Assembly: GCF_017368815.1 (NCBI RefSeq)
Contig: NZ_JAFNME010000004.1
Location: forward strand, 1 to 64,000
DNA length: 64,000 nucleotides
Source: Comamonas denitrificans
GTDB lineage: Bacteria; Pseudomonadota; Gammaproteobacteria; Burkholderiales; Burkholderiaceae_C
Direction of reading: 5' to 3'
Shown: piece after piece, positions 1,486-60,903 of the stretch
Layout of the letters: each line of letters begins with the position of its first letter
How positions within the stretch are numbered: the first letter of the stretch is position 1
Position numbers and translations under genes: made by a program
The notes under the pieces: model-generated
Told to the model about the DNA's origin: nothing
What the model saw: only the letters and a program-made list of their open reading frames with translations
The model's database searches: none

Positions 1486-2910
1486 ATGTTGAAAAAAATT
1501 GTCTCCTGCGCCGCTTTGGCGCTGACGGTGTGGGTGGCCCCGGTGCAGGCCCAGGATGCGCTCTCGACCCTGCCCCGCACGGTGCAAGCGGCGCTTAAAC
1601 GCGCACAGATTCCGGCCGATGCGCTCTCTGTGTTTGTCGCCCCGGCCCCGCCGGGCCAAGCCCCGCGCCTGGACTGGCAAAGCACCGCGCCGCGCAATCC
1701 GGCCTCGGTGATGAAGCTGGTGACCACCTATGCGGCCCTGGACCAATTGGGGCCGGCGTTTGTGTGGCGCACCCCCTTGTACTTGGATGGGGTGATCGAC
1801 AACGGCGCGTTTCGTGGCACGGTGTACATCCGGGGGGCGGGCGACCCCAAGCTGGTGTCGGAGCGGTTGTGGTTGCTGCTGGGGCGCTTGTCGGGCCTGG
1901 GGGTGCGCGTCATCGTCGGCGACATCGTGCTCGATCGCACAGCGTTTGCCCTGGCACCGCACGATCCGGGCGCTTTTGATGGCGAACCCTTTCGCCCTTA
2001 CAACGTGGGCCCCGATGCGCTCTTGATCAACTACAACAGCCAGGTGCTGGGCTTTCTCCCCGACCCTGGGGCGGGGGTGGCCCGCATCCATTACGAGCTG
2101 CCCCTGGCCGGGGTGGCGCTGCCCAGCACCGTGCCGTTGGCCCCGGCGGGCAGCGCCTGTGGCGACTGGCGTGCGCAATTGCAAGCCAATTGGAGCCAGC
2201 CCCAACAGGTGCAGCTTGCCGGCACCTACCCCGCCAGCTGCGGCGATAAAAATTGGCCCGTGGCCCTGCCCGAGCCCGAGCGCTTTGCCGCCAAAGCCAT
2301 TGAAGGCATGTGGCGCGCCCTGGGCGGCCAGCTGACCGGCACGGTGCGCGATGGCCAAGTGCCCCCGGGCCTAAAACCAGCCTGGGAAAACCAATCGCCC
2401 GCCCTGGCCGAAGTGGTGCGCGATATCAATAAATACAGCAACAACGTCATGACCCAGCAATTGCTGCTCACGCTGGCCAAAGAGCGCACGGGCCAGGGCA
2501 GCTTTGAGTCCGCCCGTTTTCTGCTCACCCAATGGTGGCAACAGCGCTGGCCCAGCGCCCCCGTCCCCGAGGTGGATAACGGGGCCGGCTTAAGCCGCGC
2601 CGCGCAGGTGACCGCCGCAGGCCTGGGGCAGATGCTGCAAAGCGTGTGGGCCTCGCCGGTGATGTCGGAATTTATGGCCTCGCTGCCCATCGCTGGCACC
2701 GATGGCACGCTGCGCCGCAGCCAAGCCAATGCCAGTGCCCACCTTAAAACCGGCAGTCTGCGCGATGCCCGGGCCCTGGCCGGATTTGTCGATGGCCGCA
2801 GCGGCCAGCGCTATGTGCTGGTGGCCTTTATCAACCATGCCAATGCCGACAATGGCCGTCCGGTCATGGATGCTTTGGTCGATTGGGTTGCCCAAGATCA
2901 AGGGCGTTAG
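1486..2910 (+). CDS. dacB: D-alanyl-D-alanine carboxypeptidase/endopeptidase, PBP4 type
   Basis: A 474-residue periplasmic serine peptidase of family S13 that trims pentapeptides and cuts peptide cross-links in peptidoglycan. Seen: a Sec signal peptide (MLKKIVSCAALALTVWVAPVQA, cleavage near residue 22 to 24), the SxxK motif as SVMK with the nucleophilic serine, the SxN motif as SNN (in KYSNNVMTQ) and the KTGS triad motif near the C-terminus. The length matches PBP4. The large insert between the first two motifs, usual for this family, is present. The start is the ATG at 1486, where the signal peptide begins. The TAG stop is formed by the end of a palindromic repeat that begins there. Confidence 0.93.
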   Translation: MLKKIVSCAALALTVWVAPVQAQDALSTLPRTVQAALKRAQIPADALSVFVAPAPPGQAPRLDWQSTAPRNPASVMKLVTTYAALDQLGPAFVWRTPLYLDGVIDNGAFRGTVYIRGAGDPKLVSERLWLLLGRLSGLGVRVIVGDIVLDRTAFALAPHDPGAFDGEPFRPYNVGPDALLINYNSQVLGFLPDPGAGVARIHYELPLAGVALPSTVPLAPAGSACGDWRAQLQANWSQPQQVQLAGTYPASCGDKNWPVALPEPERFAAKAIEGMWRALGGQLTGTVRDGQVPPGLKPAWENQSPALAEVVRDINKYSNNVMTQQLLLTLAKERTGQGSFESARFLLTQWWQQRWPSAPVPEVDNGAGLSRAAQVTAAGLGQMLQSVWASPVMSEFMASLPIAGTDGTLRRSQANASAHLKTGSLRDARALAGFVDGRSGQRYVLVAFINHANADNGRPVMDALVDWVAQDQGR

Positions 2911-2929
2911 ATCGTGAACACGTTCTGAG
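2906..2929 (-). repeat. 24-bp near-palindromic repeat at the dacB stop codon
   Basis: GTTAG-ATCGTGAACACGTT-CTGAG. This is the reverse orientation of the unit CTRAG-AACGTGTTCACGAT-CTRAG that recurs at 4183, 24448, 31742, 36644, 49603 and 60880. The TAG stop of dacB (2908-2910) is the first half of the unit. Together with the copy at 4183 it brackets the following binding-protein gene with inverted ends. Confidence 0.85.
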
Positions 2930-3031
2930 GGCGCAATCAAGGGTTTTCCCGGAAATTCGGCGGAATCAAAAAAACCCTCCGAGAGGCACAATCAAACGCT
3001 TCTCATCTGCTGTCCTTTGGAGGGTTTTGTT

Positions 3032-4186
3032 ATGCAGCGACGTCGCTTTGTTTCCCTGGCTTGCCAAACTGCCATCGTGGGGGCCTGGCCGGCATGGGCG
3101 CTGCAGGCATCGGCCCAAGAGGGCACGACCCCAGGGCTCACCGACCAAGCCATCCACATTGCCAGCAGTGTGCCGCTGACGGGCACCTTGGTCGGTTTTG
3201 GTCAGGCTGTGCAAAAAGGCGCTGGCGCTGCCTTTGCCGAGATCAATGCCCAGGGCGGTATTTATGGCCGCCAAATTCGCCTCCACCTGGTGGACGATGG
3301 CTACGACCCCGAGCGCTCGGTGGCCAACATCAAAAACATCCTTCAAGAGCGCAAAGCCCTGGCCTTGCTCTCGTGCGTGGGCACGCCCAACAACACGGCC
3401 ATCACCCCGCTGATTGAAGCGGCCGGCATTCCCCACGTGGCCCCGATTACCGGGGCGGCCTCGCTGCGCAAAGCCCAGCAATCGGTGTTTCACGTTCGCG
3501 CCGGTTACAGCGAAGAGGTGATCAGCTTGGTGCAGCGCTTGGTGGGCATGGGCCTCAAAGGCATTGCCGTGGTGTACCTGGACAACGGCTATGGCCGTGA
3601 GCTGCAAGGGGTGGCCGCCGCCGAATTGCAGCGCCTGGAGGCCACGCCCGCGGCCGAGCTGGCGCTGGAGGTGAAAGGGGACAACGCCAACGCAGTCCTG
3701 CAAGCGCTCAAGCAAGCCCGCCCTTCGGCGGTGTTGCTGCTCACGGCCGGCACGTCCTCGCTGGGCATGATTCAAGGCATCAAGCAACAGCTGCCGGGGG
3801 TGCTGATGGCGGGCTTGAGCTCCACCATCCAGGGGCTCAAGCTGGACGATGCCGCCAGCGGCATGGCTGTGACCACCATCGTGCCCGACCCGAACCGGGG
3901 CAAAAACGGCGTGGTGCGCAGCTACCAAGCGGCCATGAAGGCGCTAGGGGAGCAAGAGTTTTCGCAGGGCTCTTTGGAGGCCTACATCAACGCCCACGTG
4001 CTGGCCTACGGCCTGCGCTTGGCGGGCAAAGAACCCACCCCTGCACGCGTGCGCGCGGCCTTGTCCAGCATTCGCAACTTTGATCTGGGCGGGTTTGTCG
4101 TCAGCTACGGGGCCACGCCCCCCTTCATTGGTTCGCGCTTTATTGAGCTGGGCATCATTGGCCGCAACGGACGCTTTGTGGGTTAA
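3032..4186 (+). CDS. ABC transporter periplasmic substrate-binding protein, branched-chain amino acid (type 1) family
   Basis: A 384-residue secreted binding protein. Seen: an N-terminal targeting sequence MQRRRFVSLACQ with an RRRF core compatible with Tat export, cut after about residue 29 (ASAQ). The mature part has the LivJ-like pattern: IHIASSVPLTGTLVGFGQ, an early glycine-rich lobe, LVDDGYDPERSVANIK, and GIAVVYLDNGYGRE in the second lobe. The start is the ATG at 3032 after GGAGG at 3019-3023; an in-frame TTG at 3017 would overlap that ribosome binding site. No permease or ATPase gene is adjacent, so the partner and ligand are unknown; such orphan proteins may feed another transporter or a sensor. 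The gene is bracketed by inverted copies of the 24-bp repeat, and its TAA stop is part of the right copy. Confidence 0.88.
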   Translation: MQRRRFVSLACQTAIVGAWPAWALQASAQEGTTPGLTDQAIHIASSVPLTGTLVGFGQAVQKGAGAAFAEINAQGGIYGRQIRLHLVDDGYDPERSVANIKNILQERKALALLSCVGTPNNTAITPLIEAAGIPHVAPITGAASLRKAQQSVFHVRAGYSEEVISLVQRLVGMGLKGIAVVYLDNGYGRELQGVAAAELQRLEATPAAELALEVKGDNANAVLQALKQARPSAVLLLTAGTSSLGMIQGIKQQLPGVLMAGLSSTIQGLKLDDAASGMAVTTIVPDPNRGKNGVVRSYQAAMKALGEQEFSQGSLEAYINAHVLAYGLRLAGKEPTPARVRAALSSIRNFDLGGFVVSYGATPPFIGSRFIELGIIGRNGRFVG

Positions 4187-4206
4187 GAACGTGTTCACGA
4201 TCTAAG
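4183..4206 (+). repeat. 24-bp near-palindromic repeat at the stop of the binding-protein gene
   Basis: TTAAG-AACGTGTTCACGAT-CTAAG. The stop codon TAA at 4184-4186 lies in the first pentamer. The unit is inverted with respect to the copy at 2906, so the two form the ends of a 1.3 kb segment carrying one gene. Confidence 0.88.
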
Positions 4207-4251
4207 CCCATACTTGCCAAGCGCGGCTGCACGCGGCTTTACAACCGCGCC

Positions 4252-5274
4252 TTAGCCTGCGGCAGCGGCCCGCTCCAGCCGGTCACGCACGCCTTCCCAG
4301 TCGGCGCTCTCGGGCGGGGCTTCCACCCAAATCAAGGGCACGCCCAGGGCGTCCAAATCGCGCAAATCGCTGAATAACTGTTGGGCGGCGGCCAAGGCGT
4401 TGTGCGGCATGGCCCGCAGTGCAATGCCGGGCCCGGGGCGGGTCAGGGGGCTGCGGTGGTACACCGCCAAGGCCGGGGCCTCGCGCCCCAGCAGCTGCAG
4501 GGCGCTGCGCAGTTGCTCGGTGCCCATCAAGCGCACTTTGGCATTCGGGGCATAGTGGGCCAAAAGAGTTCCAGAGGCGCGTGGGGTATGCGCAGACAGC
4601 TCTTCTTTCGATAGTGGTCGTTGGCCGCACACCCGCGCAATATCGTCGCGCGTAATCGCCCCGGGGCGCAGCAGCACGGGCACGCCCCGGGTGCAGTCGA
4701 TGATGGTCGATTCAATGCCAACCGCACAGGCACCGCCGTCCAGCACCAATAAATCAGCGCCAAATTCGCTGGCCACATGCGCCGCCGTGGTGGGGCTGAT
4801 GCGGCCAAACTTGTTCGCGCTGGGCGCGGCCAGGCCCCAAATGGGCGGCTGGCGCTGCAGGCAGGCCTGCAGCAAAGCCTGGGCCACCGGGTGCGCCGGG
4901 CAGCGCAGGCCAATGGTGGCTTGCCCGCCTGTGGCGGCCTGGGCGATGCCCGGTCGGCAGGGCAGGATGAGGGTCAAAGGCCCGGGCCAGAAGGCCTCGA
5001 TCAGCTGCTGGGCAAACACCGGGACGGCTTGGGCGTAGTGGGCCATGGCGGCGCTGGGGCCCTGGGGGTGCCCTTGGGCATCGGCCACATGCACGATCAG
5101 CGGGTGGTCGGCCGGGCGGCCCTTGGCCGCAAAAATCTGAGCCACGGCGTTGGGGTTGTCCGCATCGGCGGCCAAGCCGTACACGGTTTCGGTCGGCAAA
5201 CCGATCAATTGGCCCTGGGCCAGCGCGTCGGCCGCGCGGGCAATGGTGTCGGGGTGGTGGCCGTCCAAAACCAT
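4252..5274 (-). CDS. L-threonylcarbamoyladenylate synthase, Sua5/YwlC type
   Basis: A 340-residue enzyme making threonylcarbamoyl-AMP from threonine, bicarbonate and ATP for t6A tRNA modification. Seen: the conserved IGLPTETVYGLAADA near residues 23-37, the KGRP substrate motif, AFWPGPLTLIL, and SANKFGRISPTTAAHV. The C-terminal Sua5 domain (from GTLLAHYAPNA to the end) makes this the long Sua5 form rather than the short TsaC form. The start is the ATG at 5274; earlier in-frame codons lie inside purK. It follows purK with 2 bases between the stop of one and the start of the other, so it is the last gene of purE-purK-sua5. tsaB, whose product acts in the same pathway, is 2.8 kb away. Confidence 0.92.
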   Translation of the reverse strand: MVLDGHHPDTIARAADALAQGQLIGLPTETVYGLAADADNPNAVAQIFAAKGRPADHPLIVHVADAQGHPQGPSAAMAHYAQAVPVFAQQLIEAFWPGPLTLILPCRPGIAQAATGGQATIGLRCPAHPVAQALLQACLQRQPPIWGLAAPSANKFGRISPTTAAHVASEFGADLLVLDGGACAVGIESTIIDCTRGVPVLLRPGAITRDDIARVCGQRPLSKEELSAHTPRASGTLLAHYAPNAKVRLMGTEQLRSALQLLGREAPALAVYHRSPLTRPGPGIALRAMPHNALAAAQQLFSDLRDLDALGVPLIWVEAPPESADWEGVRDRLERAAAAG

Positions 5275-5276
5275 GC

Positions 5277-6449
5277 TTAAAACGCCTCGATGCCCACAAT
5301 GGCAGCCGCTTGCAGCGCGGTGGCGCGGGCCGCCTCGGCCGTGGTGGCCGTGATGTTGAGGTGGCCCATCTTGCGGCCGCGTTGGGCCTGGGCCTTGCCG
5401 TACAGGTGCAGGTGGCAGCCGGGCAGCGCCAAGACTTGATCCCAGGCGGGGGTCTGGGCCGTGTCGCCATGCGCGAACCACAAATCGCCCAGCAGGTTGA
5501 GCATGATGCTCGCGCTGTGCAGGCGCGGCTGCACCAGCGGCAGGCCGGTCATGCAGCGCACTTGCAGCTCAAACTGCGACACATCGCAGCCGTTTTGGCT
5601 GTAATGGCCGCTGTTGTGCGGGCGCGGGGCGATTTCATTGACCACGAGGCTGCCGTCTTGCAGCACAAAGAACTCGACGCACAGCACACCCACATACTGC
5701 AAGCCTTCTGCTACCGATTTAGCAGCTGCCAGCGCTTGCTGGGCTTGGGCTAAAGGCAGATTTCCTTCATACACCTCGGTCACGGCCAAAATGCCATCGC
5801 GGTGCAGGTTGCGCTGCACCGGCAGGTGCACGATCTGGCCATTGCGGCCACGGGCGACGATGACGGAGCACTCGTGCGCCAGCGGCAGCATTTTTTCCAG
5901 CACGCAGGCCACGCGGCCCAGATCGTCCCAGGCCTGGGCCAGTTCTTCCAGGGTCTTGACGCGCACCTGGCCCTTGCCGTCGTAGCCCATGCGGGCCGTT
6001 TTCAGAATGCCGGGCAGCAGGTCGGCGGGCACCGCTGCCAGTTGCTCGGGCGTTTCGATCACGGCGTGCGGCGCTACGGGCACGCCGCAGCGCACAAAGT
6101 GGGCCTTTTCGGCAGCGCGGTCTTGGGCAATGGCCACCGCCGACCCGGCGGGTGCGACCGGCAGGGTCTGCGCCAGCTGGTTCAGGCTGGCAGCGGGCAC
6201 GTTTTCAAACTCGGTGGTGACGGCGGCGCAGACGCGGGCCAGCTCGGCCAAGCCTTGGGCATCGCTGTAGCCGCTGCGGATGTGCTGGTGGCTGATGCGC
6301 CCGGCGGGGCTGGTGGCATCGGGGTCGAGCACGGCGGTGAAGTAGCCCATGGCCTGCGCCGCGTGGGCAAACATGCGGCCCAGCTGGCCGCCCCCCAGTA
6401 CGCCCAGCGTCGCGCCGGGCAGGATTACGGGCGTGGCATGGGCGCTCAT
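5277..6449 (-). CDS. purK: N5-carboxyaminoimidazole ribonucleotide synthase PurK
   Basis: A 390-residue ATP-grasp enzyme converting AIR, ATP and bicarbonate to N5-CAIR in de novo purine synthesis. Seen: the N-terminal [16 protein letters not shown] nucleotide-fold motif (about residues 10-25), [13 protein letters not shown] in the ATP-grasp region, ECSVIVARG, and near the C-terminal third [14 protein letters not shown], the metal/ATP-binding signature. The length is normal. Its start overlaps the purE stop by four bases (ATGA), so both enzymes of the two-step carboxylation are translationally coupled. Confidence 0.96.
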
Positions 6450-6943
6450 GCGTTCACCGGCAAAGTCATGGCGCGCGCCGTTTCGGTCTGCTCGGCGCGG
6501 AAGGCATTGAGCTGGGCGCGCAGGGCCGGGTCTTCGTTGGCCAGCAGCGCCACGGCAAACAGCGCGGCATTGGCCGCCCCGGCCTGGCCAATGGCAAACG
6601 TGGCCACAGGCACGCCCTTGGGCATTTGCACGATGCTGTGCAGCGAATCCACGCCCTGCAGGTGGCGGCTGGCCACGGGCACGCCCAGCACGGGCACGGG
6701 GGTTTTGGCGGCGATCATGCCCGGCAGATGGGCTGCGCCGCCCGCGCCCGCAATGATGGCCTTGAGGCCGCGCTCGGCGGCCGCTTCGGCGTAGCGGAAC
6801 ATGTCGTCGGGCATGCGGTGGGCCGAGACCACCTGCGCCTCAAACGCGATACCGAATTGCTGGAGGATGGCAACGGCGTGCTGCATGGTGTCCCAGTCAC
6901 TGCTGGAGCCCATGACCACACCAACTTGGATGGCTGCTTGCAT
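6446..6943 (-). CDS. purE: N5-carboxyaminoimidazole ribonucleotide mutase PurE
   Basis: A 165-residue class I PurE moving the carboxyl group of N5-CAIR to give CAIR. Seen: [14 protein letters not shown] at the N-terminus (phosphate-binding SxSD), VVSAHRMPD with the catalytic histidine, [14 protein letters not shown], and [10 protein letters not shown]. The start is the ATG at 6943 (MQAAIQVG), which fits the family; an upstream in-frame ATG at 7024 would translate through a terminator-like hairpin. purC, the next pathway gene, is not adjacent here but lies about 17 kb away at 23.5 kb. Confidence 0.96.
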
Positions 6944-6954
6944 AGTGTGAAAGT

Positions 6955-6994
6955 AAAAAAGCGCGCCCAGGGCATCTAACGACGCTGAGCGCGC
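6955..6994 (-). terminator. Intrinsic terminator between the ABC transporter genes and purE
   Basis: Read on the minus strand, GCGCGCTCAG (6994-6985) pairs with CTGGGCGCGC (6970-6961) around a 14-nt loop, followed by six T residues (6960-6955). It ends only about 11 bases before the purE ATG. It could close the upstream ABC transporter unit or work as an attenuator in the purE leader; the sequence does not decide. Confidence 0.75.
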
Positions 6995-7043
6995 GTGCTG
7001 GCGCAGGGGAAGAACAACCGCCAAAGCGGCAAAGCCGCAGATT

Positions 7044-8408
7044 TTACGGCGCGATCGTCTTTTGCGGGGTCATGTGCTGGGACAGCCCACGACCGTTCTG
7101 GGACGAGCGTGCCGCCCACCCCACCCACAGGCAGGCCAGCGCCAGCTGTGCGCCCAGGGCCATCCAGGCCCAGGGGCGCGGCAAGGTGCCCGGTGGGGCC
7201 ACATCGCCGACCAGCACCGCCAGGGGTTGCAGCGCTGCGGCGGCGGTGTTGCCCGCGGTGCCCAATACCAGCAGGGGCAGCACCAGGTTGATGACCAGCC
7301 AGGTCACGGTAAAGACGGCCACGGGCGATTTCCAGCGCTGGGCCTGCAGGGCAAAGCCGGTCAGGATCAGCCCCTCGCGCAGCAGTTGTGCGCAGGCCAG
7401 CAGCAGCCACCAGCCCACCGTGGTGGTGCTGGACTGGCTCCAGGCGATGGCCGAGGCCAGCAGCGCCAGCAGCCAGCTGATGGGCCACAGGGGCAGTGCC
7501 TGCCAAGCGCTGCGCCAGCGCCGCTGCTGCAGCCCCCACTGCACCTGATGCCAGGCGCGGGCATGGCCCGCCATGTGTTGCAGGCCGATGAAGGCGGTGG
7601 CCACCAAGGCCCAGCCCGCCAGGTGCGGCCACAGCGCGGCAGCCTGCGTGTGCCAGACCCCGGCGCTGGCCACCCCGGCCACCACCAGCCCCACGGGCCA
7701 GGCCCAGGGCAGGGTGGGCACATCCAGGCGCTCGCACAGCTGGCGCCACAGGGCCAGCAGGCCCAGTCCGCAGGCGGCAAGGCCCAGCACGTACGCCAAG
7801 CCCCAGTCGCCCAAGTCCCAGCCCCACCAGGGGTGGTGTTCGGGCGAGGGCAGGGCGCGCACCAGCCCCAGCACCAGGGGCAAGCCGATCAGCGCCAGCA
7901 GCCACAGGCTGCGCTGCTGCCACGGCCCGGCGTGCCAGCGCACCAGCACCGCATTCATGGCCCAGGCCTGGGCGGCCAAGCCCCACAGCACGGCCAGCAT
8001 CAGCAGGTGCCAGGCGCGGTGCGCGCCCCACAGCAGCTCCCACACCGAGGCGGCCACGACGCTGGTCACGCCAAACAAGGCGGCGTACAGCCAGGCGGGC
8101 ACCGTGGCACCCAGCAGCTTGCCCCAGGCCATTTGCCAGGGGGTGAGGGCCGACAGGCGCTGCCAGTCCCAGGTGTGCTGGCGCACTTCCTCGCTCAGGC
8201 TGCGCGCGGCCAGCACGCTGGCGTACCCCGTGGTGCTGGCCCACAGGCCAAAGACTGCCGTCAGGCCCAGGCTGGCCAGGCGTTCATGGGCATCGGACAA
8301 AACCAAGGGCAGCGCCAGGATCAGGCTGCACAGCAGCAGCGTCCACAGCGCCAGGCTGGGCCGCCAGTTAAGCCAGAGCTGGCGTTGAAATTCTGGATTG
8401 TTAAGCAT
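7044..8408 (-). CDS. ABC transporter permease-like membrane protein of unknown substrate
   Basis: A 454-residue polytopic membrane protein with about 12 hydrophobic segments, the first at about residues 18-38. The N-terminal half has the ABC-2 permease look: a cytoplasmic N-terminus, then an [25 protein letters not shown]-type cytosolic stretch after the second membrane segment, as seen in the coupling region of this class. I do not recognise a specific family. Its start overlaps the end of the ATPase gene by eight bases, so the two form a transporter unit. Trp is unusually frequent. An exporter of lipid or hydrophobic substrate is possible but not shown. Confidence 0.75.
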
Positions 8409-9336: not shown

Positions 9337-9356
9337 GGCTGGGCTCTTTGCAATAC

Positions 9357-9446
9357 AAAAGAGAGCTTCTTGCGCTCGTATTTATTAGGTTTCACAGTGA
9401 AAACACCTTAAAAATAACTATTTACAAGCGAAAGCAGCTTTTTTAT
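9357..9446. repeat. AT-rich inverted-repeat element (copy 1)
   Basis: About 90 bp, strongly AT-rich against its surroundings. The left end holds GAGCTTCTTGCGCTCG (9363-9378) and the right end CAAGCGAAAGCAGCTT (9425-9440), imperfect inverted repeats around an AT-rich centre. The TAA stop of the neighbouring minus-strand gene sits at 9447-9449, exactly at its right edge. Same family as copies at 18297, 24501, 40136, 43665, 48770 and 60929. Confidence 0.8.
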
Positions 9447-13408: not shown

Positions 13409-13475
13409 TCATCAACACATAAAAGAGAGGGTACAGCCGCCGGGCGATAATTTGCGGTTGCTTGCACCTGATCGA

Positions 13476-18296: not shown

Positions 18297-18385
18297 AAAA
18301 AGAGCTGCTCCCGCTGATAAATCAACGTTTTCAAGATAAAAATCTTGAAAAACCCTTTATTTATCAGCGAAAACAGCTTCTTTAA
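18297..18385. repeat. AT-rich inverted-repeat element (copy 2)
   Basis: Begins directly after the TAA at 18294-18296. The left end AGAGCTGCTCCCGCTGATAAAT is mirrored by ATTTATCAGCGAAAACAGCTTCT at the right end, with a central inverted pair TTTTCAAGAT/ATCTTGAAAA. The whole can fold as one long hairpin. Confidence 0.85.
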
Positions 18386-23530: not shown

Positions 23531-24451
23531 ATGACTACGCCTAGCACCTCTGCCTTGCACACTTCCAATATTGCTTCTTTGCCCCTCTTGGCGCGTGGCA
23601 AGGTGCGTGACAACTACGCGGTGGGCGATGACCGCATTTTGATGGTGGCCAGCGATCGCCTGTCGGCCTTTGACGTGATCATGGGCGAACCCATTCCGGG
23701 CAAGGGCGAGCTGCTGACCCAGATGGCGCTGTTTTGGTTTGCCAAATTGGGCCATATTTGCCCCAACCACCTGACCGGCGAAGCACCGGAGAGCGTGGTC
23801 ACGCCTGAAGAAATTCCCCAAGTCAAAAACCGCGCCATGCTGGTGCAGCGCCTGCAGCCGATCATGATTGAGGCCGTGGTGCGCGGCTATTTGGCGGGCA
23901 GCGGCTGGAAGGAATACCAAGACAGCCAGGCCGTTTGCGGCGTGCCCCTGCCTGCGGGGCTGACGAATGCGGCCAAGCTGCCCGCACCGATCTACACCCC
24001 GGCGGCCAAGGCCGAGATGGGCGACCACGACGAAAACATCACCTACGAGCGCACGGTGGAGATGGTGGGCGAAAAGCTGGCCGCGCAAATTCGCGACACC
24101 GCGATCCGCCTGTACCAAGAGGCGGCCGAAATCGCCCTGCAAAAAGGCATGATCATTGCCGATACCAAGTTTGAATTTGGCCTGACGCAAGACGGTACCC
24201 TGGTGCTGATGGACGAGGTGCTCACGCCCGACAGCTCGCGCTACTGGCCCGTGGAGGGCTACGCAGAAGCCCTGGCCAAAGGCGACAACCCGCCCAGCTA
24301 CGACAAGCAGTTTGTGCGCGACTGGCTGGAGCAGGCCAAGGTCAATGGCAAGCTGTGGGACAAAAAAGCCCCGGCCCCGCGCCTGCCGCACGAGGTGATT
24401 GAGAAAACCGCCGCCAAGTACCGCGAGGCCTTGCAGCGTTTGACGGCCTGA
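23531..24451 (+). CDS. purC: Phosphoribosylaminoimidazole-succinocarboxamide synthase (SAICAR synthase)
   Basis: A 306-residue enzyme joining CAIR and aspartate with ATP in purine synthesis. Seen: [15 protein letters not shown] (nucleotide binding), [31 protein letters not shown]-like segment, [11 protein letters not shown] and [15 protein letters not shown]. The longer form (about 300 residues) resembles yeast-type SAICAR synthases common in betaproteobacteria. The start is the ATG at 23531; a TTG at 23522 is in frame but less likely. It stands apart from purEK. The stop TGA is part of the 24-bp repeat. Confidence 0.96.
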
Positions 24452-24471
24452 GAACGTGTTCACGATCTGAG
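24448..24471 (+). repeat. 24-bp near-palindromic repeat at the purC stop codon
   Basis: CTGAG-AACGTGTTCACGAT-CTGAG, with identical direct pentamers on both sides. The purC stop TGA (24449-24451) lies in the first pentamer. An AT-rich element of the other family begins 30 bases further on. Confidence 0.88.
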
Positions 24472-24500
24472 CACCGGCCTCTCCCAACTTATTTAAAAAC

Positions 24501-24590
24501 AAGAGCTGTTTGCGCTTGATTTGTAAAGTTTTTAGGTTGTTTTAACCATGAAAACCTTGTATTTCAAGCGGATGCAGCTCTTTTTTATTA
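24501..24590. repeat. AT-rich inverted-repeat element (copy 3)
   Basis: The left end AAGAGCTGTTTGCGCTTG (24501-24518) is mirrored by CAAGCGGATGCAGCTCTT (24565-24582) around a 46-bp AT-rich core, with a T/A run at the right edge. It fills the gap between convergent purC and holA and may also act as a terminator-like hairpin. Confidence 0.85.
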
Positions 24591-31741: not shown

Positions 31742-31765
31742 CTGAGAACGTGAACACGTTCTTAG
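31742..31765. repeat. 24-bp palindromic repeat, symmetric form
   Basis: CTGAG-AACGTGAACACGTT-CTTAG. The core AGAACGTGAACACGTTCT has identical outer arms, unlike the asymmetric copies. It is in a divergent intergenic region, the only copy that does not provide a stop codon. Confidence 0.85.
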
Positions 31766-35945: not shown

Positions 35946-36647
35946 ATGCAATTGCACTTGGAAGGCAGCAGCATCGCCCTGGATGCGGTGATGCTGGATT
36001 TGGATGGCACCTTGGTGAACACCTTGGGCGATTTTTCAGCGGCGCTCAACGGCATGTTGGCCGATTTGCAGTTGCCCGCGATAGCCCCCGAAGTGATTGA
36101 GCACTTGGTGGGCAAGGGCACCGAGCATTTGTTGCGCTCTGTCTTGGCCCATGGGGGGCTGGATGCCGCCCAGGTGCAGGCCCAGTATGCGCAGGCGTGG
36201 CAGCGCTATGAGCACCATTATTTGCGCATCAATGGCCAGTTTGCCCAGGTGTATCCGGGGGTGGAGGAGGGCTTGCACACCTTGGCCGCGGCGGGCTTGC
36301 CGCTGGCGTGTTTGACCAACAAGCCGCTGGCGTTTGCCCAGCCGTTATTGCGTGCCAAAGGTTTGGAAAAATATTTTCAGTGCGTGTTTGGCGGTGATTC
36401 GTTTGCCCGCAAAAAGCCCGATCCGCTGCCGCTGCTGGAAACCTGCAAGGCCTTGGGCACCCAGCCAGGGCGCACCTTGATGGTGGGCGATTCGAGCAAC
36501 GATGCGCAAGCGGCGCGGGCGGCCGGTTGCCCGGTGGTGCTGATGACCTATGGTTTTAACCACGGCGAGCCGATTGCTGCAGTGCCCGCGCTGGCGCATT
36601 GGGATGCGCTGGCGCAGGTGCAGGGGCGTTTGAGTCCGCAGCGCTAA
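35946..36647 (+). CDS. gph: Phosphoglycolate phosphatase
   Basis: A 233-residue HAD-family hydrolase. Motif I DLDGTLVNT (residues 18-26) carries the nucleophilic Asp; motif II is the Thr in CLTNKPL; the lysine of motif III is in FARKKPDPLPLLE and motif IV is VGDSSNDAQAARAAG. The cap domain is the helical C1 type. Gph removes 2-phosphoglycolate made during repair of 3'-phosphoglycolate DNA ends. In many relatives gph lies just before trpE; here the chemoreceptor, speDE and the chalcone-isomerase-like gene intervene. The stop TAA is the first part of a hairpin repeat. Confidence 0.92.
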   Translation: MQLHLEGSSIALDAVMLDLDGTLVNTLGDFSAALNGMLADLQLPAIAPEVIEHLVGKGTEHLLRSVLAHGGLDAAQVQAQYAQAWQRYEHHYLRINGQFAQVYPGVEEGLHTLAAAGLPLACLTNKPLAFAQPLLRAKGLEKYFQCVFGGDSFARKKPDPLPLLETCKALGTQPGRTLMVGDSSNDAQAARAAGCPVVLMTYGFNHGEPIAAVPALAHWDALAQVQGRLSPQR

Positions 36648-36811
36648 GAACGTGTTCACGATCTCCTCATGGGTGTGCGGGCGCGGCTTCGGGCGGTCTG
36701 CGTCGTTGCAAATCCTCGCAATAGCCAAGCTATTGCTGTGGTTTGCGCCTCGCAACCCATCCCGAACCGCATCCCCCACACCTTCATTCGAGATCATGAA
36801 CACGTTCTAAG
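36644..36811. mobile_element. 168-bp MITE-like hairpin element bounded by the palindromic repeat
   Basis: The left end is CTAAG-AACGTGTTCACGATCT and the right end is AGATCATGAACACGTT-CTAAG, inverted except for the direct pentamers CTAAG, which could be target duplications. The interior is an imperfect long palindrome with its tip near 36706-36745 (GCAATAGC / GCTATTGC). It has no coding capacity. It provides the gph stop codon (36645-36647) and ends 19 bases from the chemoreceptor gene's stop. Confidence 0.75.
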
Positions 36812-40135: not shown

Positions 40136-40216
40136 GCAGAGCGGCTACCGCTGATAAACATTCATTTTCAGAGCTAAAACACTGAAATTTGTTTATCTAT
40201 CAGCGCAAAATGCTAT
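40136..40216. repeat. AT-rich inverted-repeat element (copy 4)
   Basis: Begins right after the TAA of speD-speE and ends at the stop of the convergent gene. CCGCTGATAAAC near the left mirrors GTTTATCTATCAGCGC on the right; the centre carries TTTTCAGAG / CACTGAAA. Probably folds as one hairpin between two convergent transcripts. Confidence 0.82.
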
Positions 40217-43664: not shown

Positions 43665-43750
43665 AAGAGCTGCTTGCGCTGGTAAACCAATGGTTTCAGC
43701 GTTTAATTGATTTGAAAGCATGAATAAATAAGCGGATGCAGCTCACAAAT
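43665..43750. repeat. AT-rich inverted-repeat element (copy 5)
   Basis: AAGAGCTGCTTGCGCTGGT at the left and AAGCGGATGCAGCTCAC at the right flank an AT-rich core, between trpG and trpD. It interrupts what is elsewhere often a tight trpG-trpD junction. Confidence 0.82.
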
Positions 43751-48852: not shown

Positions 48853-48859
48853 TTGATCT

Positions 48860-49585: not shown

Positions 49586-49602
49586 TATTGAGCCGGGGGC
49601 GG

Positions 49603-49626
49603 CTTAGATCATGAACACGTTCTTAC
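49603..49626 (-). repeat. 24-bp near-palindromic repeat at the queA stop codon
   Basis: CTTAG-ATCATGAACACGTT-CTTAC; on the minus strand it reads TAAG-AACGTGTTCATGAT-CTAAG, whose first TAA is the queA stop (49625-49623). The copy shares the CAT variant with the right end of the 168-bp element at 36644. Confidence 0.85.
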
Positions 49627-50705: not shown

Positions 50706-50926
50706 AAAGCAAAAAAGGCTTGAGGGCGGAACAACGCCCGTACCAAGAAACAATAAGGCGGCGATTGTCGCAAAACCTGCAGATGCTTTTTGTGACTAGG
50801 GTTTGCCCATGAAAGTAAAAAAATTGCCACCCGGGTGCTTGATGGATATCAGGAAACTTGTCACTATGGGTTCTACACTGGCGGGCTCAAAAAGCGTGTG
50901 TAAAAAAGGGAGGCAAGGTGGTGACC

Positions 50927-52057: not shown

Positions 52058-52084
52058 CGCGGTAGCTGGGGAAAGCCCGAATGC

Positions 52085-52127
52085 AAAGCGCTCCGTGCGG
52101 CAGGCAGGGAGCGCTTTTGCGTTTTTA
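52085..52127. terminator. Bidirectional terminator between two c-di-GMP genes
   Basis: A perfect 10-bp stem AAAGCGCTCC (52085-52094) / GGAGCGCTTT (52108-52117), with TTTTGCGTTTTT beyond it on the plus strand and an A/T-poor start on the other side. It separates the convergent hemerythrin-GGDEF and HD-GYP genes, whose ends lie 67 bp apart. Confidence 0.88.
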
Positions 52128-53369: not shown

Positions 53370-53455
53370 GTGCTAAATGCCCACAATCGAGAAAATGTTA
53401 CTTCGCATATTAGCCCGTAAAAAGGCTTAAAAATCATCGTAACTGTTAAGAATGT

Positions 53456-55588
<2,133 letters not shown>

Positions 55589-55678
55589 ACCGTGGCAAGG
55601 GCCCCAAAGCCCCACCTTGCCGCGCCATTGCATTGGAATGCGTGATACAAACCGTTTCTTTGATAGCAAAAAATAGTT

Positions 55679-56641
55679 ATGACGCTCACCGAACTCAAAT
55701 ACATCGTCGCCGTGGCCCGGGAGCGGCACTTTGGCCGTGCCGCCGAAGCTTGTTTTGTCTCGCAACCGACGCTGTCGGTGGCCGTCAAAAAACTCGAAGA
55801 AGAGCTGGATGTCAAAATCTTTGAGCGCAGCTCCAACGAGGTGACCATCACCGCCCTGGGTGAAGACATCGTGCGCCAGGCGCAAAGCGTGCTGGACCAG
55901 GCGGCTGAAATCAAAGAAATCGCCAAGCGCGGCAAAGACCCCCTGGCCGGGGTGCTCACCCTGGGCGTGATTTACACCATCGGCCCGTATTTGCTGCCCG
56001 ATTTGGTGCGCCAGTCCATTGCCCGCACGCCGCAAATGCCGCTCATGCTGCAGGAGAACTTCACCGTCAAACTGCTGGAAATGCTGCGCACCGGCGAGAT
56101 CGACTGCGCCATCTTGGCTGAGCCCTTTCCTGATACGGGCCTGGCCATCGCCCCGCTGTATGACGAGCCGTTTTTGGCCGCCGTGCCCAGCACCCATCCC
56201 CTGGCCCAGCAAGAATCCATCAGCACCCAACAGCTGAAAAATGAAACCATGTTGCTGCTGGGCGCGGGCCACTGCTTTCGCGACCACGTGCTGGAGGTAT
56301 GCCCCGAATTTGCCCGCTACGCCAGCAACGCCGAAGGCATTCGCCGCAGCTTTGAAGGCTCTTCACTCGAAACCATCAAACACATGGTCGCTGCCGGCAT
56401 GGGCGTGACCCTGGTGCCGCGCCTGTCGGTGGCCAACGATGCGCTGCAAAGCCCGCGCCGTCGCCGCTCGGACGAGCCCTACATCCGCTACCTGCCGATT
56501 GTGGAGCCCGACGGCAGCGCCCCGCCCAAGCGCCGCGTCAGCCTGGTGTGGCGGCGCAGCTTTACCCGTTACGAGGCCATCGCCGCCCTGCGCAACGCCA
56601 TCCATGCCTGCAAGCTGCTGGGGGTGGAGCGCTTGAATTAA
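55679..56641 (+). CDS. oxyR: Hydrogen peroxide-inducible regulator OxyR (LysR family)
   Basis: A 320-residue LysR-type regulator. The N-terminal helix-turn-helix is TLTELKYIVAVARERHFGRAAEACFVSQPTLS. The peroxide-sensing cysteines are both present at residues 199 and 208 (GHCFRDHVLEVC), the same positions as in E. coli OxyR, which distinguishes it from other LysR proteins. The C-terminal effector domain is complete. It lies downstream of recG, as in Burkholderia, and may be read from the recG promoter or its own in the 90-bp gap. Confidence 0.95.
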   Translation: MTLTELKYIVAVARERHFGRAAEACFVSQPTLSVAVKKLEEELDVKIFERSSNEVTITALGEDIVRQAQSVLDQAAEIKEIAKRGKDPLAGVLTLGVIYTIGPYLLPDLVRQSIARTPQMPLMLQENFTVKLLEMLRTGEIDCAILAEPFPDTGLAIAPLYDEPFLAAVPSTHPLAQQESISTQQLKNETMLLLGAGHCFRDHVLEVCPEFARYASNAEGIRRSFEGSSLETIKHMVAAGMGVTLVPRLSVANDALQSPRRRRSDEPYIRYLPIVEPDGSAPPKRRVSLVWRRSFTRYEAIAALRNAIHACKLLGVERLN

Positions 56642-56650
56642 GCACCTTGC

Positions 56651-57316
56651 CTAGCGCTGCTGGGGTGCCACTTCACCCATGTAGATTTCGACGCGGCGGT
56701 TTTGGGCGCGGCCTTCGATGGTGGCGTTGCTGGCCACCGGCTCGCGCGAGCCACGCCCTTCGGTGTAGATGCGCGAGCCATCCGCACCGCGATTGATCAA
56801 GTAATTGCGTGTGGCATTGGCGCGGTTGATCGACAGCGGGTTGTTCACCGCATCGCTGCCGGTGCTGTCGGTGTGGCCAATGATGTCCACCGTGTAATTC
56901 GGCGTACTGCGCAGGCCATCGGCAAAGCGGTTCAAGATGGGGGCGAAATTGCTCTTGATGTCGTAGCGGCCGGTGTCAAAAGAAACATCGCTGGGGATGT
57001 CCAGCTTCAAGCGGTTGTCTGCCGTTTGGCTCACGCCAATGCCCGTGCCTTGGGTGGCCTCCTGCATTTCGCGCTTGCGCTTTTCCATATTGGCCGACCA
57101 GATATAGGTGCCAATGCCGCCAATGGCTGCGCCGGCCACCGCACCCACCCCCGCTTTGCCGCCCGTGGCCGAGGCAATCACCGCGCCGGCCACCGCACCC
57201 ACGCCCGTGCCAATGGCCGTGCGGCGCTGGGTATCGGACATGCCGGTATCGGCGCAGCCGCTTACCGTTAAAACTGCCACCAAGGCGGTGGCCGTCATGG
57301 TCATCATTTTGCGCAT
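56651..57316 (-). CDS. OmpA-family lipoprotein with glycine zipper (YiaD-like)
   Basis: A 221-residue lipoprotein. Seen: a lipobox VLTVSGC (Cys21), a glycine-zipper region IGTGVGAVAGAVIASATGG and GVGAVAGAAIGGIG (about 35-70) expected to insert in or lie on a membrane, and a C-terminal OmpA-like peptidoglycan-binding domain from about 105: VDIIGHTDSTGS and RANATRNYLINRGADGSRI, with the NRRVEI ending. It probably links the outer membrane to the wall. The start MRKMM is taken at 57316. It is divergent from mltA. Confidence 0.92.
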   Translation of the reverse strand: MRKMMTMTATALVAVLTVSGCADTGMSDTQRRTAIGTGVGAVAGAVIASATGGKAGVGAVAGAAIGGIGTYIWSANMEKRKREMQEATQGTGIGVSQTADNRLKLDIPSDVSFDTGRYDIKSNFAPILNRFADGLRSTPNYTVDIIGHTDSTGSDAVNNPLSINRANATRNYLINRGADGSRIYTEGRGSREPVASNATIEGRAQNRRVEIYMGEVAPQQR

Positions 57317-57414
57317 ACAAAAGTCCTTTCCTCGGGCCAGCAGGGCCGGTACACACGATCAAAGCAATACAGATTGCCAATGGACAAGGCGCAGATTGGC
57401 GCAAAATCGGCCCC

Positions 57415-58584
57415 ATGACCGCATCCTTTTTTCCCCGCGCCTTGCTGCTGCTCATTGTAGGTAGTTTGATTGCCTGCTCCACGCCGCGCAAAGGCGATAT
57501 CCCTATGGCTGACAAAGTGCCCCCGCTGCCCACGGGCATGGTGCCCGATACAGCGCCGCTGCCCCCGCCCATTGCCCGCCCAGGCAGCCGCTGGGTGCCG
57601 GTGCGCTGGGCCGAACTGCCCGGCCTGGCCGAGGACGATGTGCACCAAGCCCTGCAAGCCTGGCAGCACAGCTGCACCGCGCCGCCGGCCGCGCTGGCCC
57701 GTTTGTGCCCAGACATTCGCCGCCTGGGCCTGGCCAATACCGCCCAAATTTGGCACTGGCTGCAAACGCATATGCAGCCCTACCGGGTGGAAGACCACAG
57801 CGGCAACAGCAACGGCATGCTGACGGCGTATTACGAGCCATTTTTTAATGCGCAGCGCCAGCCCGACCCCGTGTTTCGCTACCCCTTGTACGCCGCCCCC
57901 GTGGGGGTGGAGGGCTTTGGCAAGCGCAAGCCCTGGCTGTCGCGCCAGCAAATTGAATCGTCCCCCAGCGTGCAGGCGGCCTTGGCCGGGCATGAGATTG
58001 CTTGGCTGGACGACCCGGTCAAAGTGCTCGTCCTGCACATCCAAGGTTCTGGCCGTTTGAACATGACCGAGCCCGATGGCCGCCAGCGCCAAGTGCGTGC
58101 CGCTTTTGCCGCCACCAACGACCACCCCTACCGCAGCGTAGGCAAATGGCTGTTGGAGCGGGGCCTGGTGCGCGATGCCACGTGGCCAGGCATCACCGCC
58201 TGGACGCAGGCCAACCCCAGCCGCGTGCAAGAGATGCTGTGGAGCAACCCACGCTATGTGTTCTTTCGGGAAGAGGCGCTGGATGAAGTCAGCAGCAACT
58301 TTGGCCCCAAAGGGGCGCAGGGCGTGCCGCTGACCGCCGAACGCTCGATTGCCGTAGACCGGCGCAGCATTCCGTATGGCACGCCCGTGTGGCTCTCCAG
58401 CAGCGGTCCCACACAGGCCTTGAACCGTTTGGTGCTGGCCCAAGACACGGGCAGCGCCATTGTGGGGGCCGTGCGGGCCGATTACTTCATGGGTTCGGGT
58501 GAGATTGCGGGCGACATTGCGGGCCGCACCAAGCAGGATTTGCGCCTGTGGGTGCTGTGGCCCAAGGGGGCCCCGGCCCCCTAG
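57415..58584 (+). CDS. mltA: Membrane-bound lytic murein transglycosylase A
   Basis: A 389-residue outer-membrane lipoprotein cutting glycan strands into 1,6-anhydro products. Seen: the lipobox LIAC (Cys21) in a short signal peptide, the MltA double-psi barrel, with GNSNGMLTAYYEP and FGKRKPWLSRQQIE, the HIQGSGRLNMTEPDG region, and the catalytic Asp in VLAQDTGSAIVGAVRADYF near residue 344. The start is the ATG at 57415. It converges with recX, nine bases apart, without a visible terminator. Confidence 0.94.
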   Translation: MTASFFPRALLLLIVGSLIACSTPRKGDIPMADKVPPLPTGMVPDTAPLPPPIARPGSRWVPVRWAELPGLAEDDVHQALQAWQHSCTAPPAALARLCPDIRRLGLANTAQIWHWLQTHMQPYRVEDHSGNSNGMLTAYYEPFFNAQRQPDPVFRYPLYAAPVGVEGFGKRKPWLSRQQIESSPSVQAALAGHEIAWLDDPVKVLVLHIQGSGRLNMTEPDGRQRQVRAAFAATNDHPYRSVGKWLLERGLVRDATWPGITAWTQANPSRVQEMLWSNPRYVFFREEALDEVSSNFGPKGAQGVPLTAERSIAVDRRSIPYGTPVWLSSSGPTQALNRLVLAQDTGSAIVGAVRADYFMGSGEIAGDIAGRTKQDLRLWVLWPKGAPAP

Positions 58585-58593
58585 CGCCGGCGC

Positions 58594-59154
58594 TTAATCT
58601 TCGGCCGCATCCTCGTGCGGTGCCTGCCCGCGCACCACTTTGCCAATCACCTCCATCGCAAAGCCCCGGCTGGCCAAAAAGCGCATCTGCCGGGCGCGCT
58701 CCTGGGGCGTGCTGGCCACCTCCCCAAATTTGCGTTGCCACACCGCCCAGCAGCGTGGGTGCTCGGTGTCGCGCAAGGTATCGGCGGCTTGGCGCACGAT
58801 GGCTTCATCCAAGCCTTTTTGCCGCAACTCTTGCAGCACCCGCTGGCTGCCCAGCTTGGGGGCGCGGCGGTAAAGCACGGATTGGGCCACGCGCTCAGGC
58901 TGGATAAAGCCTTTGGCTTCGAGCTTGTCCAGCACGGCGGCCAACTCTTCTGCGGTTGGCATGGGTGCGGCCCCATCGGCATGGGCCGGGCGCTGGCTGG
59001 GCGCAGTTTCTGCCGCGCCTTCCTCTGCTGCCGATTGCTCTGCCGCCGGTTGCACAAAGCGCTGCAGCTTGCGCTGCAGCTCCAGGCGCGAATGCTCGCG
59101 CTGGGCGAGCAGGCGCAGCGCCCGGGCCGTCAGGCTCAACGGCGCGGCGGCCAT
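58594..59154 (-). CDS. recX: RecA regulatory protein RecX
   Basis: A 186-residue inhibitor of RecA filament activity. The tandem three-helix repeats can be read from LTARALRLLAQREHSRLELQRKL through RVAQSVLYRRAPKLGSQRVLQEL to the KFGEVASTPQERARQMRFLASRGF segment. An Ala/Glu/Gln-rich insert of about 30 residues (after FVQPAAEQSAAEE) lengthens the protein beyond the usual 150-160. The start overlaps the recA stop by one base (TAATG), so it is coupled to recA. Confidence 0.93.
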   Translation of the reverse strand: MAAAPLSLTARALRLLAQREHSRLELQRKLQRFVQPAAEQSAAEEGAAETAPSQRPAHADGAAPMPTAEELAAVLDKLEAKGFIQPERVAQSVLYRRAPKLGSQRVLQELRQKGLDEAIVRQAADTLRDTEHPRCWAVWQRKFGEVASTPQERARQMRFLASRGFAMEVIGKVVRGQAPHEDAAED

Positions 59155-60281
59155 TACAGGATGACACCGTCCTCATCGACTTCGCCTTTTTTGGCCTTGG
59201 TCGGTTTGGCGGGTTTTTCGGCGGCATCGGCGGCGGCTGGGGCCGCACCAGCGGCCGGGGCCACGCCCAGGTGTGCGCGCACTTTGTTTTCGATTTCGGC
59301 GGCCAGGGCCGGGTTTTCTTTCAAAAATTCGCGGGTGTTGTCGCGGCCTTGGCCAATTTTTTCGCCGTTGTAGGCGTACCAAGCGCCCGATTTATCCAAA
59401 ATTTTCGCCTCCACCCCCATGTCGATGATCTCGCCCATGCGGCTGATGCCCTCGCCAAACAAAATGTCGAACGCGGCGGTTTTGAACGGCGGCGAGACTT
59501 TGTTCTTCACCACTTTGACCTTGGTTTCGTTGCCGATGACGTTGTCGCCCTTTTTGATGCTGCCGGTGCGGCGGATGTCCAGGCGCACCGAGGCGTAAAA
59601 CTTCAGCGCGTTGCCGCCGGTGGTGGTTTCGGGGCTACCAAACATCACGCCAATCTTCATGCGGATTTGGTTGATGAAGATGACGGTGCAATTGGTCTTT
59701 TTGATGGTGGCGGTCAGTTTGCGCAGCGCCTGGCTCATCAAGCGCGCTTGCAGGCCAGGCAGGCTGTCGCCCATCTCGCCCTCGATTTCGGCTTTGGGCA
59801 CCAGGGCCGCGACCGAGTCAATCACAATCAAATCGACCGCGCCCGAGCGCACCAGGCTATCGACAATCTCCAGCGCCTGCTCGCCGGTGTCGGGCTGGCT
59901 AATCAGCACCTCATTCAAGTTCACGCCCAGTTTTTGCGCGTAGCTGGTGTCCAGCGCGTGCTCGGCATCGATGAAGGCGCAGGTGCCCCCGATTTTTTGC
60001 ATCTCGGCAATCACTTGCAAGGTCAGTGTGGTCTTGCCGGACGATTCCGGGCCGTAAATTTCAATCACCCGGCCGCGCGGCAGGCCGCCCACGCCCAGGG
60101 CCACGTCCAGCCCCAGCGAACCGGTGGAGACGACTTGGATGTCTTCCACCACCTCGCCTTCGCCCAGTTTCATGATGGTGCCTTTGCCAAATTGCTTTTC
60201 AATTTGGGCCAGGGCGGCGGCCAGGGCTTTGGCTTTTTCTTCCGAGGGGGCGGCGGCAGGGGTGCGGGCGGTGGCGTTCAT
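59154..60281 (-). CDS. recA: Recombinase RecA
   Basis: A 375-residue strand-exchange protein and SOS coprotease. Seen: Walker A GPESSGKT (77-84), [29 protein letters not shown]-type segment, [20 protein letters not shown], loop 2 in [26 protein letters not shown], and an Ala/Lys-rich acidic C-terminal tail. The start is the ATG at 60281, preceded by AAACAGGAG. A CTG-N10-CAG sequence at 60311-60326 is the likely LexA site. It is divergent from a MarR-type gene. Confidence 0.97.
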
Positions 60282-60310
60282 GGTGAAACTCCTGTTTAAA
60301 AATACAGTGA

Positions 60311-60326
60311 CTGGACGAATGAACAG
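60311..60326. promoter_or_regulatory. Likely LexA (SOS) box of recA
   Basis: CTGGACGAATGAACAG, that is CTG-N10-CAG, lies about 30 bases upstream of the recA start. The form fits the beta/gammaproteobacterial LexA consensus in its conserved triplets, with weaker matches in the central bases. Confidence 0.6.
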
Positions 60327-60356
60327 TAATGTAAAACAACAGATGGCTATAATTTA

Positions 60357-60387
60357 GTCAGTTTGTTTGATTTTTAGGAAAACTGAC
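60357..60387. promoter_or_regulatory. Inverted repeat before the MarR-type gene
   Basis: GTCAGTTT (60357-60364) and AAACTGAC (60380-60387) are perfect inverted octamers, 15 bp apart, ending one base before the ATG at 60389. A TATAAT -10 box lies just upstream at 60348-60353. The site could be an autoregulatory operator or, in RNA, a hairpin over the ribosome binding site (AGGA, 60376-60379). Confidence 0.55.
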
Positions 60388-60388
60388 C

Positions 60389-60883
60389 ATGCTGCAAAAT
60401 AACCCGCACGCAGATGCTTGGCGCCAAACCCATTTGGGCCAGTTGTTGGGCCATGCCCTGCGCCAGTTTGACCAGCGCGTGCGCACGCTGATGGTGCAGG
60501 ATGCGGCGGTGCCGCTGGCGCTATCGAACTTGGCCGAGCGCGACAAGGTCAGCGCCGCCCACCTGCACATCACCCGGCATTTAAGCCCGCAGGGCGACCG
60601 CTTGACCGATTTGGCCGACCGCGCGGGCATGAGCAAGCAGGCCATGGCCGATTTGATTGACCAGTGCGAGGCCTGGGGCCTGGTCGAGCGCCGCCCCGAC
60701 CCGCTGGACCGCCGCGCCAAGCGGGTGTGCTACACCGCCAGCGGCCTGCAGTGGTACCAGGGCTTTGCCCGCGCCACGGCCCAGGCCGAGGCCGAATTTA
60801 CCGCCGCCGTGGGCGAGGAAGTGGCCACCGTGGTGCGCATTGCCCTGGAGATGTACGGGGCCGATGCGGGGCGGCTGGCCTAA
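60389..60883 (+). CDS. MarR-family transcriptional regulator
   Basis: A 164-residue winged-helix regulator. The DNA-binding core reads LTDLADRAGMSKQAMADLIDQCEAWGLVERRPDPLDRRAKRVCYT, with the family's D-x-R-D/R wing motif as DPLDRRAKRV. The flanking helices should form the dimer interface. The ligand is not predictable. The start is the ATG at 60389. It is divergent from recA, and its TAA stop is in a copy of the 24-bp repeat. Position next to recA has no clear functional meaning. Confidence 0.9.
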   Translation: MLQNNPHADAWRQTHLGQLLGHALRQFDQRVRTLMVQDAAVPLALSNLAERDKVSAAHLHITRHLSPQGDRLTDLADRAGMSKQAMADLIDQCEAWGLVERRPDPLDRRAKRVCYTASGLQWYQGFARATAQAEAEFTAAVGEEVATVVRIALEMYGADAGRLA

Positions 60884-60903
60884 GAACGTGAACACGTTCT
60901 AAG
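60880..60903. repeat. 24-bp palindromic repeat, symmetric form, at the MarR-gene stop
   Basis: CTAAG-AACGTGAACACGTT-CTAAG. TAA at 60881-60883 is the stop codon of the MarR-type gene. Direct CTAAG pentamers flank the core, as in the 168-bp element at 36644. Confidence 0.88.

What the first reader, a model, noticed from the sequence alone, without database searches (positions are those of the whole stretch)
2906..60903. A 24-bp near-palindrome sits on stop codons all over the window
Seen: CTRAG-AACGTG-TTCACGAT-CTRAG or its close forms at 2906, 4183, 24448, 31742, 49603 and 60880, plus both ends of the element at 36644. At dacB, the binding-protein gene, purC, gph, queA and the MarR-type gene, the unit's own TAG/TAA/TGA is the gene's stop codon. 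Only 31742 is purely intergenic. Either the element inserts at CTRAG sites that happen to be stops, or it has repeatedly replaced gene ends and supplied a new stop. It may also be a terminator or protein-binding site chosen for gene ends. I know of no described system with this exact unit.
Basis: partly seen in the sequence, partly recalled or inferred. Interest (0 to 1): 0.8.

Follow-up and report, generated by a model that had tools for sequence, protein, structure and literature searches.

The report
Transposon scars duplicated onto stop codons
The repeated 24-letter palindrome is most likely what remains after a small hitch-hiking transposon inserts into a gene's stop codon, copies that stop to both sides and then loses its middle, so that many insertions can sit at gene ends without changing the proteins.

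Summary
The unit is C-TNA-[16 bp GAACGTGNNCACGWTC]-TNA-G: TNA is a 3-bp target duplication and CTNAG the insertion target of an IS5-family element. The genome holds 30 solo 16-mers, at least 40 copies of a 160-bp MITE with the same ends (one at 36648-36807), deletion derivatives, and one 842-bp IS5-family IS with near-identical ends. TAA and TGA are TNA words, so insertion there duplicates the stop and leaves the protein unchanged: relatives lacking the unit stop at the same codon in 14 of 19 comparable cases. In this genome 51 of 71 counted copies sit on stops, against 11.6% of non-coding TNA sites, a 7- to 12-fold excess over tandem intergenic sites after allowing for motif and composition. 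Occupied stops avoid operon-internal positions, so selection explains at least part. The solos look like nearly precise excision scars: the MITE's near-palindromic ends also match as direct repeats (12-13 of 17), and slippage between them predicts the 16-mer types seen. Two shared sites show lineage-specific shrinkage, but no orthologous 160-versus-16 pair was found. It is neither a terminator nor stop replacement. New variant of a known kind.

The parts
2907..2928 (-). solo 16-mer (2910-2925) between TTA and TGA, at the TAG stop of the dacB-type gene; flanks differ
4184..4205 (+). solo 16-mer between TAA and TAA; the first TAA is the stop of the binding-protein gene
24449..24470 (+). solo 16-mer between TGA and TGA; the first TGA is the purC stop
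31743..31764 (-). intergenic solo 16-mer, perfect-palindrome type, flanks TGA and TTA
36645..36810 (+). 160-bp MITE (36648-36807) between TAA and TAA; the first TAA is the gph stop
49604..49625 (-). solo 16-mer, right-end type (CATGATC), between TAA and TAA at the queA stop
60881..60902 (+). solo 16-mer, perfect-palindrome type, between TAA and TAA at the stop of the MarR-type gene

Best explanation
A MITE family (160-162 bp in this genome) is moved in trans by an IS5-family DDE transposase. It inserts at CTNAG, preferably CTWAG in GC-rich context, and duplicates the central TNA. TAA and TGA are TNA words, and a TTAG stop keeps its TAG because the element begins with G, so insertion at a stop leaves the protein unchanged while insertion inside genes is lost. 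The MITE ends are near-palindromes, so the left end (GAACGTGTTCACGATCT) and the right end (GATC[GA]TGAACACGTTCT) also align as direct repeats at the foot of a long hairpin. Shown: TNA duplications, target motif, retention of the stop, stop enrichment, an IS with near-identical ends, deletion derivatives. Inferred: mobilisation in trans, slippage as the mechanism, selection as the main cause of the stop bias.
For: At least 40 MITE copies (only 40 of 91 candidates were scored). An 842-bp IS (L021:1666-2507) with ends GAACGTGTTCAAAGTCTC in a tandem TAA-MITE-TAA-IS-TAA-solo-TAA; DUF4096 and DDE_Tnp_1, IS5-family models. Related ISs in Tistrella (TGA), Aromatoleum (TTA) and Xanthomonas (TAA) have TNA duplications within CTNAG. 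51 of 71 own copies at stops against 350 of 3016 non-coding or stop TNA sites; Poisson model 11.7x over tandem intergenic, p=1.9e-16; logistic model with local GC about 7x, p=3e-7. Other species: 53 of 74 intact-duplication solos at stops, odds ratio 17 against TNA, 5.2 against CTNAG. Relatives lacking the unit stop at the same codon in 14 of 19. Scar model: GATC at both ends in 0 of 299 genomes; AA centre with a GATC end 0 of 31 own, 1 of 107 others; a predicted hybrid for another TIR in G335; 10-bp versus 16+10-bp scars at one shared site and 160-bp MITE versus 56-bp derivative at another; the MITE folds end to end, z=-9.
Against: No orthologous site with a full MITE in one genome and a 16-mer in another was found. 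Perfect-palindrome solos could also arise from a pure-end solo by one A-to-T change, and the AA/GATC exclusion is also expected if a solo were simply a copied single end. TNA flanks differ in 6 of 31 own and 33 of 107 other matches. Selection does not obviously explain 18 of about 1282 A/T-type non-CTWAG stops hit against 0 of about 1301 comparable convergent sites (scaled estimates), while for CTWAG the convergent class is too thin (1 of about 6). MITE and IS ends agree at 15 of 18 positions, not all, and the IS transposase is single-copy.
Confidence: 0.76

Rival explanations
1. The 16-mer is itself a transposable unit: its two ends are GAACGTG and CACGWTC, and the transposase moves the 16 bp directly into CTNAG.
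For: Exact TNA duplications around 16 bp in 25 of 31 own matches; solos occur in genomes of several genera; at C30 one solo is present here and absent from G313.
Against: 10-bp scars and 49- to 115-bp derivatives show a range of sizes; centre and GATC end are linked as in one parental end; two ends overlapping in 16 bp could hardly be paired by a transposase (inference).
Confidence: 0.08
2. The palindrome is a host signal (terminator, mRNA stabiliser or protein site) kept at gene ends by selection.
For: Strong location at gene ends; three of six 24-mers fold better than shuffles with z below -3; the MITE core hairpin at 36718-36736 is itself in the terminator-like list.
Against: No U tract and none of the six in the terminator-like lists; direct TNA repeats rather than palindromic flanks; empty orthologous sites in relatives; no Rfam match.
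Confidence: 0.06
3. Insertion and scar as proposed, but the transposase actively targets gene ends (transcription or translation termination), rather than selection removing other insertions.
For: Stop excess of 7 to 12 times after motif and composition; same pattern in other species.
Against: Occupied stops avoid operon-internal places (3 of 50 against 110 of 395) and favour tight convergent ends (13 of 50 against 28 of 395), as selection predicts.
Confidence: 0.1

Closest known systems
IS5-family insertion sequences and their MITEs
   Same: 842 bp, DUF4096 and DDE transposase in two overlapping frames, short TIRs, target duplication. IS427-group elements of 832-865 bp are tabulated in PMC3281130 (passages seen).
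   Different: That table gives mostly 2-bp duplications for the IS427 group; here it is TNA in CTNAG, with heavy stop-codon occupancy. That the IS1031 group duplicates TNA is recalled, not from a call, and the subgroup was not settled.
Nearly precise excision of Tn10
   Same: Excision through short direct repeats inside inverted ends, leaving a remnant (Foster et al. 1981 seen only as a reference and one sentence in PMC5991714; copy-choice work as described in PMC12524634, passages).
   Different: Here the near-palindromic MITE ends are themselves the direct repeats and only 16 or 10 bp remain. Mechanism not tested by experiment.
REP singlets and REPINs
   Same: Short palindromes read as defunct remnants of a hairpin-forming doublet (PMC3116915, passages).
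   Different: TNA duplications and DDE-type IS ends; no RAYT was looked for.
Other bacterial MITEs (Correia/NEMIS, RUP, QMITE)
   Same: Non-autonomous, TIRs, target duplication (PMC2229807, passages). One MITE at a gene's 3' end is reported to change the protein's C-terminus (PMC5896051, passages).
   Different: The passages read describe no preference for the stop codon itself and no family of 16-bp scars.

Membership tests
IS5 family (the 842-bp IS) | IS5-family transposase with DDE domain | tested here: met
   DUF4096 and DDE_Tnp_1 above Pfam cut-offs; NCBIfam transpos_IS5_3: ORFB 144.8 against cut-off 110, ORFA 97.4, below it
IS5 family (the 842-bp IS) | terminal inverted repeats and target duplication | tested here: met
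   GAACGTGTTCAAAGTCTC at both ends, TAA on both sides; relatives TGA, TTA, TAA; a fourth (Acidovorax DW039) could not be delimited
IS5 family (the 842-bp IS) | active transposition | not testable with these tools
   single transposase copy; frameshift between the two ORFs not tested
MITE | short, TIRs, target duplication, multicopy | tested here: met
   160-162 bp, at least 40 copies, TNA duplications
MITE | mobilised by an IS sharing its TIRs | tested here: inconclusive
   15 of 18 end positions shared with the IS (read); movement not shown
Tn10-type nearly precise excision scar | short direct repeats within the inverted ends | tested here: met
   12-13 of 17 direct identity for the MITE ends, 9 of 17 for the IS
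Tn10-type nearly precise excision scar | scar at a site that held the full element | tested here: inconclusive
   160 versus 56 bp and 10 versus 16+10 bp at shared sites; no 160-versus-16 pair
Tn10-type nearly precise excision scar | independent of transposase and RecA | not testable with these tools
   needs genetics; defining feature recalled
REP/REPIN | associated RAYT tyrosine transposase | not tested
   no RAYT search made
Intrinsic terminator (24-mers) | G+C-rich hairpin followed by a run of T | tested here: not met
   none of the six solos in the lists

The most novel reading that the evidence does not exclude
An IS5-family system recognises gene ends as such, so that stop codons are its preferred landing sites beyond the CTWAG motif, and its MITEs routinely collapse to 10-16 bp scars, some of the small forms still being mobile.
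Probability: 0.1. Interest if true: 0.8.

Novelty: new variant of a known kind. Interest (0 to 1): 0.52.

Why it matters
It gives a simple, testable rule for how a mobile element can reach high copy number in a compact genome without harm: a target duplication (TNA) that is itself a stop codon. It shows that short palindromes at gene ends can be transposon scars rather than signals, and supplies dozens of natural scars whose sequence classes test the slippage model. The stop excess left after motif and composition makes it a concrete question whether target choice, selection or both decide where such elements are found. Seven searches of the held open-access library bore on a stop-codon MITE, IS5-type target rules or excision scars; their listings, and the passages read from a few of the listed papers, showed no such family. 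Most subscription papers are not held, so this is not proof of novelty.

Tried and rejected
Terminator reading of the 24-mers: no support, though three of six fold better than shuffles and the MITE core hairpin is terminator-like. Known RNA family: none. Phage records: no match. Plasmid records: 6 matches, covering 29-52% of the query, core only. The core alone is widespread: 22 of 60 family genomes, this one included, match the 160-bp query (14 candidates scored per genome). End pairs of 788, 1007, 1056, 1108, 1355 and 3308 bp are neighbouring elements paired by the script; only the 842-bp span holds transposase. The search for queA ends recognised 6 of 30 loci; the other 24 were not read.

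Rows left out of the 71 own copies: two composite rows of 179 bp, one of 216 bp and the 842-bp IS row; four of the 40 scored MITE copies and two remnants that my end pattern did not match. Looked at afterwards, by gene end against element edge, four of these six abut a stop (C67, C23, C2, C34) and two do not (C32, C56). The MITE end at C56:112011 was counted as an intergenic solo, which lowers the stop fraction. In the other species three matches are intragenic (L125 Schlesneria, L128 Paracidovorax, L178 Helicobacter). A supposed solo-versus-MITE pair at L072/G335 was rejected because the G335 insertion lies about 9 bp away. The gene caller was my own (codon model trained on the window), also used on other species.
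Full report
Observation. Genome-wide, TNA-GAACGTGNNCAYGWTC-TNA occurs at 31 places; one is a MITE end, leaving 30 solos. The genome is 3.0 Mb in 74 contigs. Of 299 family genomes 11 have the solo pattern, this one most.

What it belongs to. The element at 36648-36807 is 160 bp with the same 16-bp ends. At least 40 copies exist (40 of 91 candidates were scored), besides derivatives of 56, 65 and 115 bp. At L021 (contig C14) a tandem reads TAA-MITE-TAA-842 bp-TAA-solo-TAA. The 842-bp piece encodes an IS5-family transposase in two overlapping frames, has ends GAACGTGTTCAAAGTCTC (15 of 18 positions as in the MITE), and is the only copy found of that transposase. Related ISs on plasmids of Tistrella, Aromatoleum and Xanthomonas show the same kind of ends and TNA duplications within CTNAG; a fourth could not be delimited.

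Target and stop codons. TNA is identical on both sides in 25 of 31 own and 74 of 107 other pattern matches. The outer bases are C and G together in 37 of 71 own copies. Of 71 own copies (31 solo-pattern places, 36 MITEs of 159-162 bp, four derivatives), 51 lie on stops: 37 in phase (TAA or TGA) and 14 at TAG stops made of TA from the target and G from the element. None of the 71 is intragenic. Background from 464 kb (the window and 20 fixed blocks, 422 genes by my own caller): 350 of 3016 non-coding or stop TNA sites are stops, and 24 of 111 CTNAG sites. For the 57 copies with intact duplication, 42 at stops, a Poisson model with motif gives 11.7-fold over tandem intergenic sites (p=1.9e-16) and a logistic model with local GC about 7-fold (p=3e-7). 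CTWAG stops: 22 occupied, about 91 free (scaled). In other species 53 of 74 intact solos are on stops, 19 intergenic, 2 intragenic. Occupied stops avoid places where the next gene follows within 40 bp on the same strand (3 of 50 against 110 of 395) and favour convergent ends closer than 40 bp (13 of 50 against 28 of 395). Selection therefore shapes the pattern; whether it is the whole cause is open.

Proteins are unchanged. Of 29 fetched purC orthologues (of 52 other genomes matched), 25 keep the last residues RLTA. For 21 stop-solos, 19 had a G313 or G335 relative lined up, and in 14 the relative stops at the same codon without the unit. In the other five the relative's end differs or the alignment stops early; at dacB G335 seems to carry a related GAACCTG-type element at the stop. 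Of 12 TAG rows with intact duplication, the base after the second copy shows that the old stop was TAG in 9 and TAA in 2; in one (L001) it was a Tyr codon, so there the element made the stop.

How solos arise. Left end GAACGTGTTCACGATCT and right end GATC[GA]TGAACACGTTCT match at 12-13 of 17 in direct orientation, and the MITE folds end to end (z=-9). One crossover between them gives a pure end or the perfect palindrome, and forbids GATC at both ends and AA with a GATC end. Observed: GATC at both ends in 0 of 299 genomes; AA with GATC 0 of 31 own and 1 of 107 others (the one in a Schlesneria record, intragenic). G335, where most ends listed are GAACCTGTTCACGATC, has the hybrid GAACGTGAACAGGTTC. 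At contig C30 this genome has TAA-16-TAA-10-TAA where G313 has TAA-10-TAA in 98% identical flanks, the neighbouring 16-mer being shared. At a gene end on C2, G335 holds the full MITE and this genome the 56-bp derivative. Two full MITEs are shared with relatives, one with G335 and one with G328. Paracidovorax wautersii (L159) and an uncultured Acidovorax (L163) carry two different 16-mers at one orthologous stop, which one substitution would also explain. The 65-bp derivative has, read by eye, the same CTTC-repeat junction at three sites, so it either recurred or moved; the copies are not identical. Element families with less direct identity (11 of 17) have few solos: three in G313 and G335 against 23 paired elements in the loci held. 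Gap: no orthologous 160-versus-16 pair was found.

Known relatives and verdict. The parts are known kinds: an IS5-family IS, a MITE, and scars like nearly precise excision of Tn10. The combination, a duplication word that equals the stop codon, stop occupancy beyond motif, and 16-bp scars that look like a regulatory palindrome, was not met in the searches made. Novelty: new variant of a known kind.

Noticed in passing
18297-18378, 24495-24590, 40138-40187, 43665-43743, 60931-61012: A second, AT-rich intergenic hairpin repeat (AGAGCTGCTTGCGCT type), with similar sequence downstream of several orthologous genes in G313 and G335; possibly a terminator-like repeat family.
   Followed up: no
36686-36771: The MITE core (about element positions 37-124) is shared at 73-97% with stretches in 21 other genera of the family and with Cupriavidus, Comamonas and Mitsuaria plasmids, mostly without the ends matching: one hairpin core with many ends.
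   Followed up: partly
L012:1449-1519, L029:1498-1568, L442:1075-1139: A 65-bp deletion derivative with the same CTTC junction at three separate sites, one beside an IS-like end; it may itself be mobile.
   Followed up: partly
L082, L085, L087 and others (NZ_CACSJA records): Records titled Pantoea sp. 18069 carry many of these units otherwise seen mostly in Comamonadaceae; the title may be wrong or the assembly mixed.
   Followed up: no
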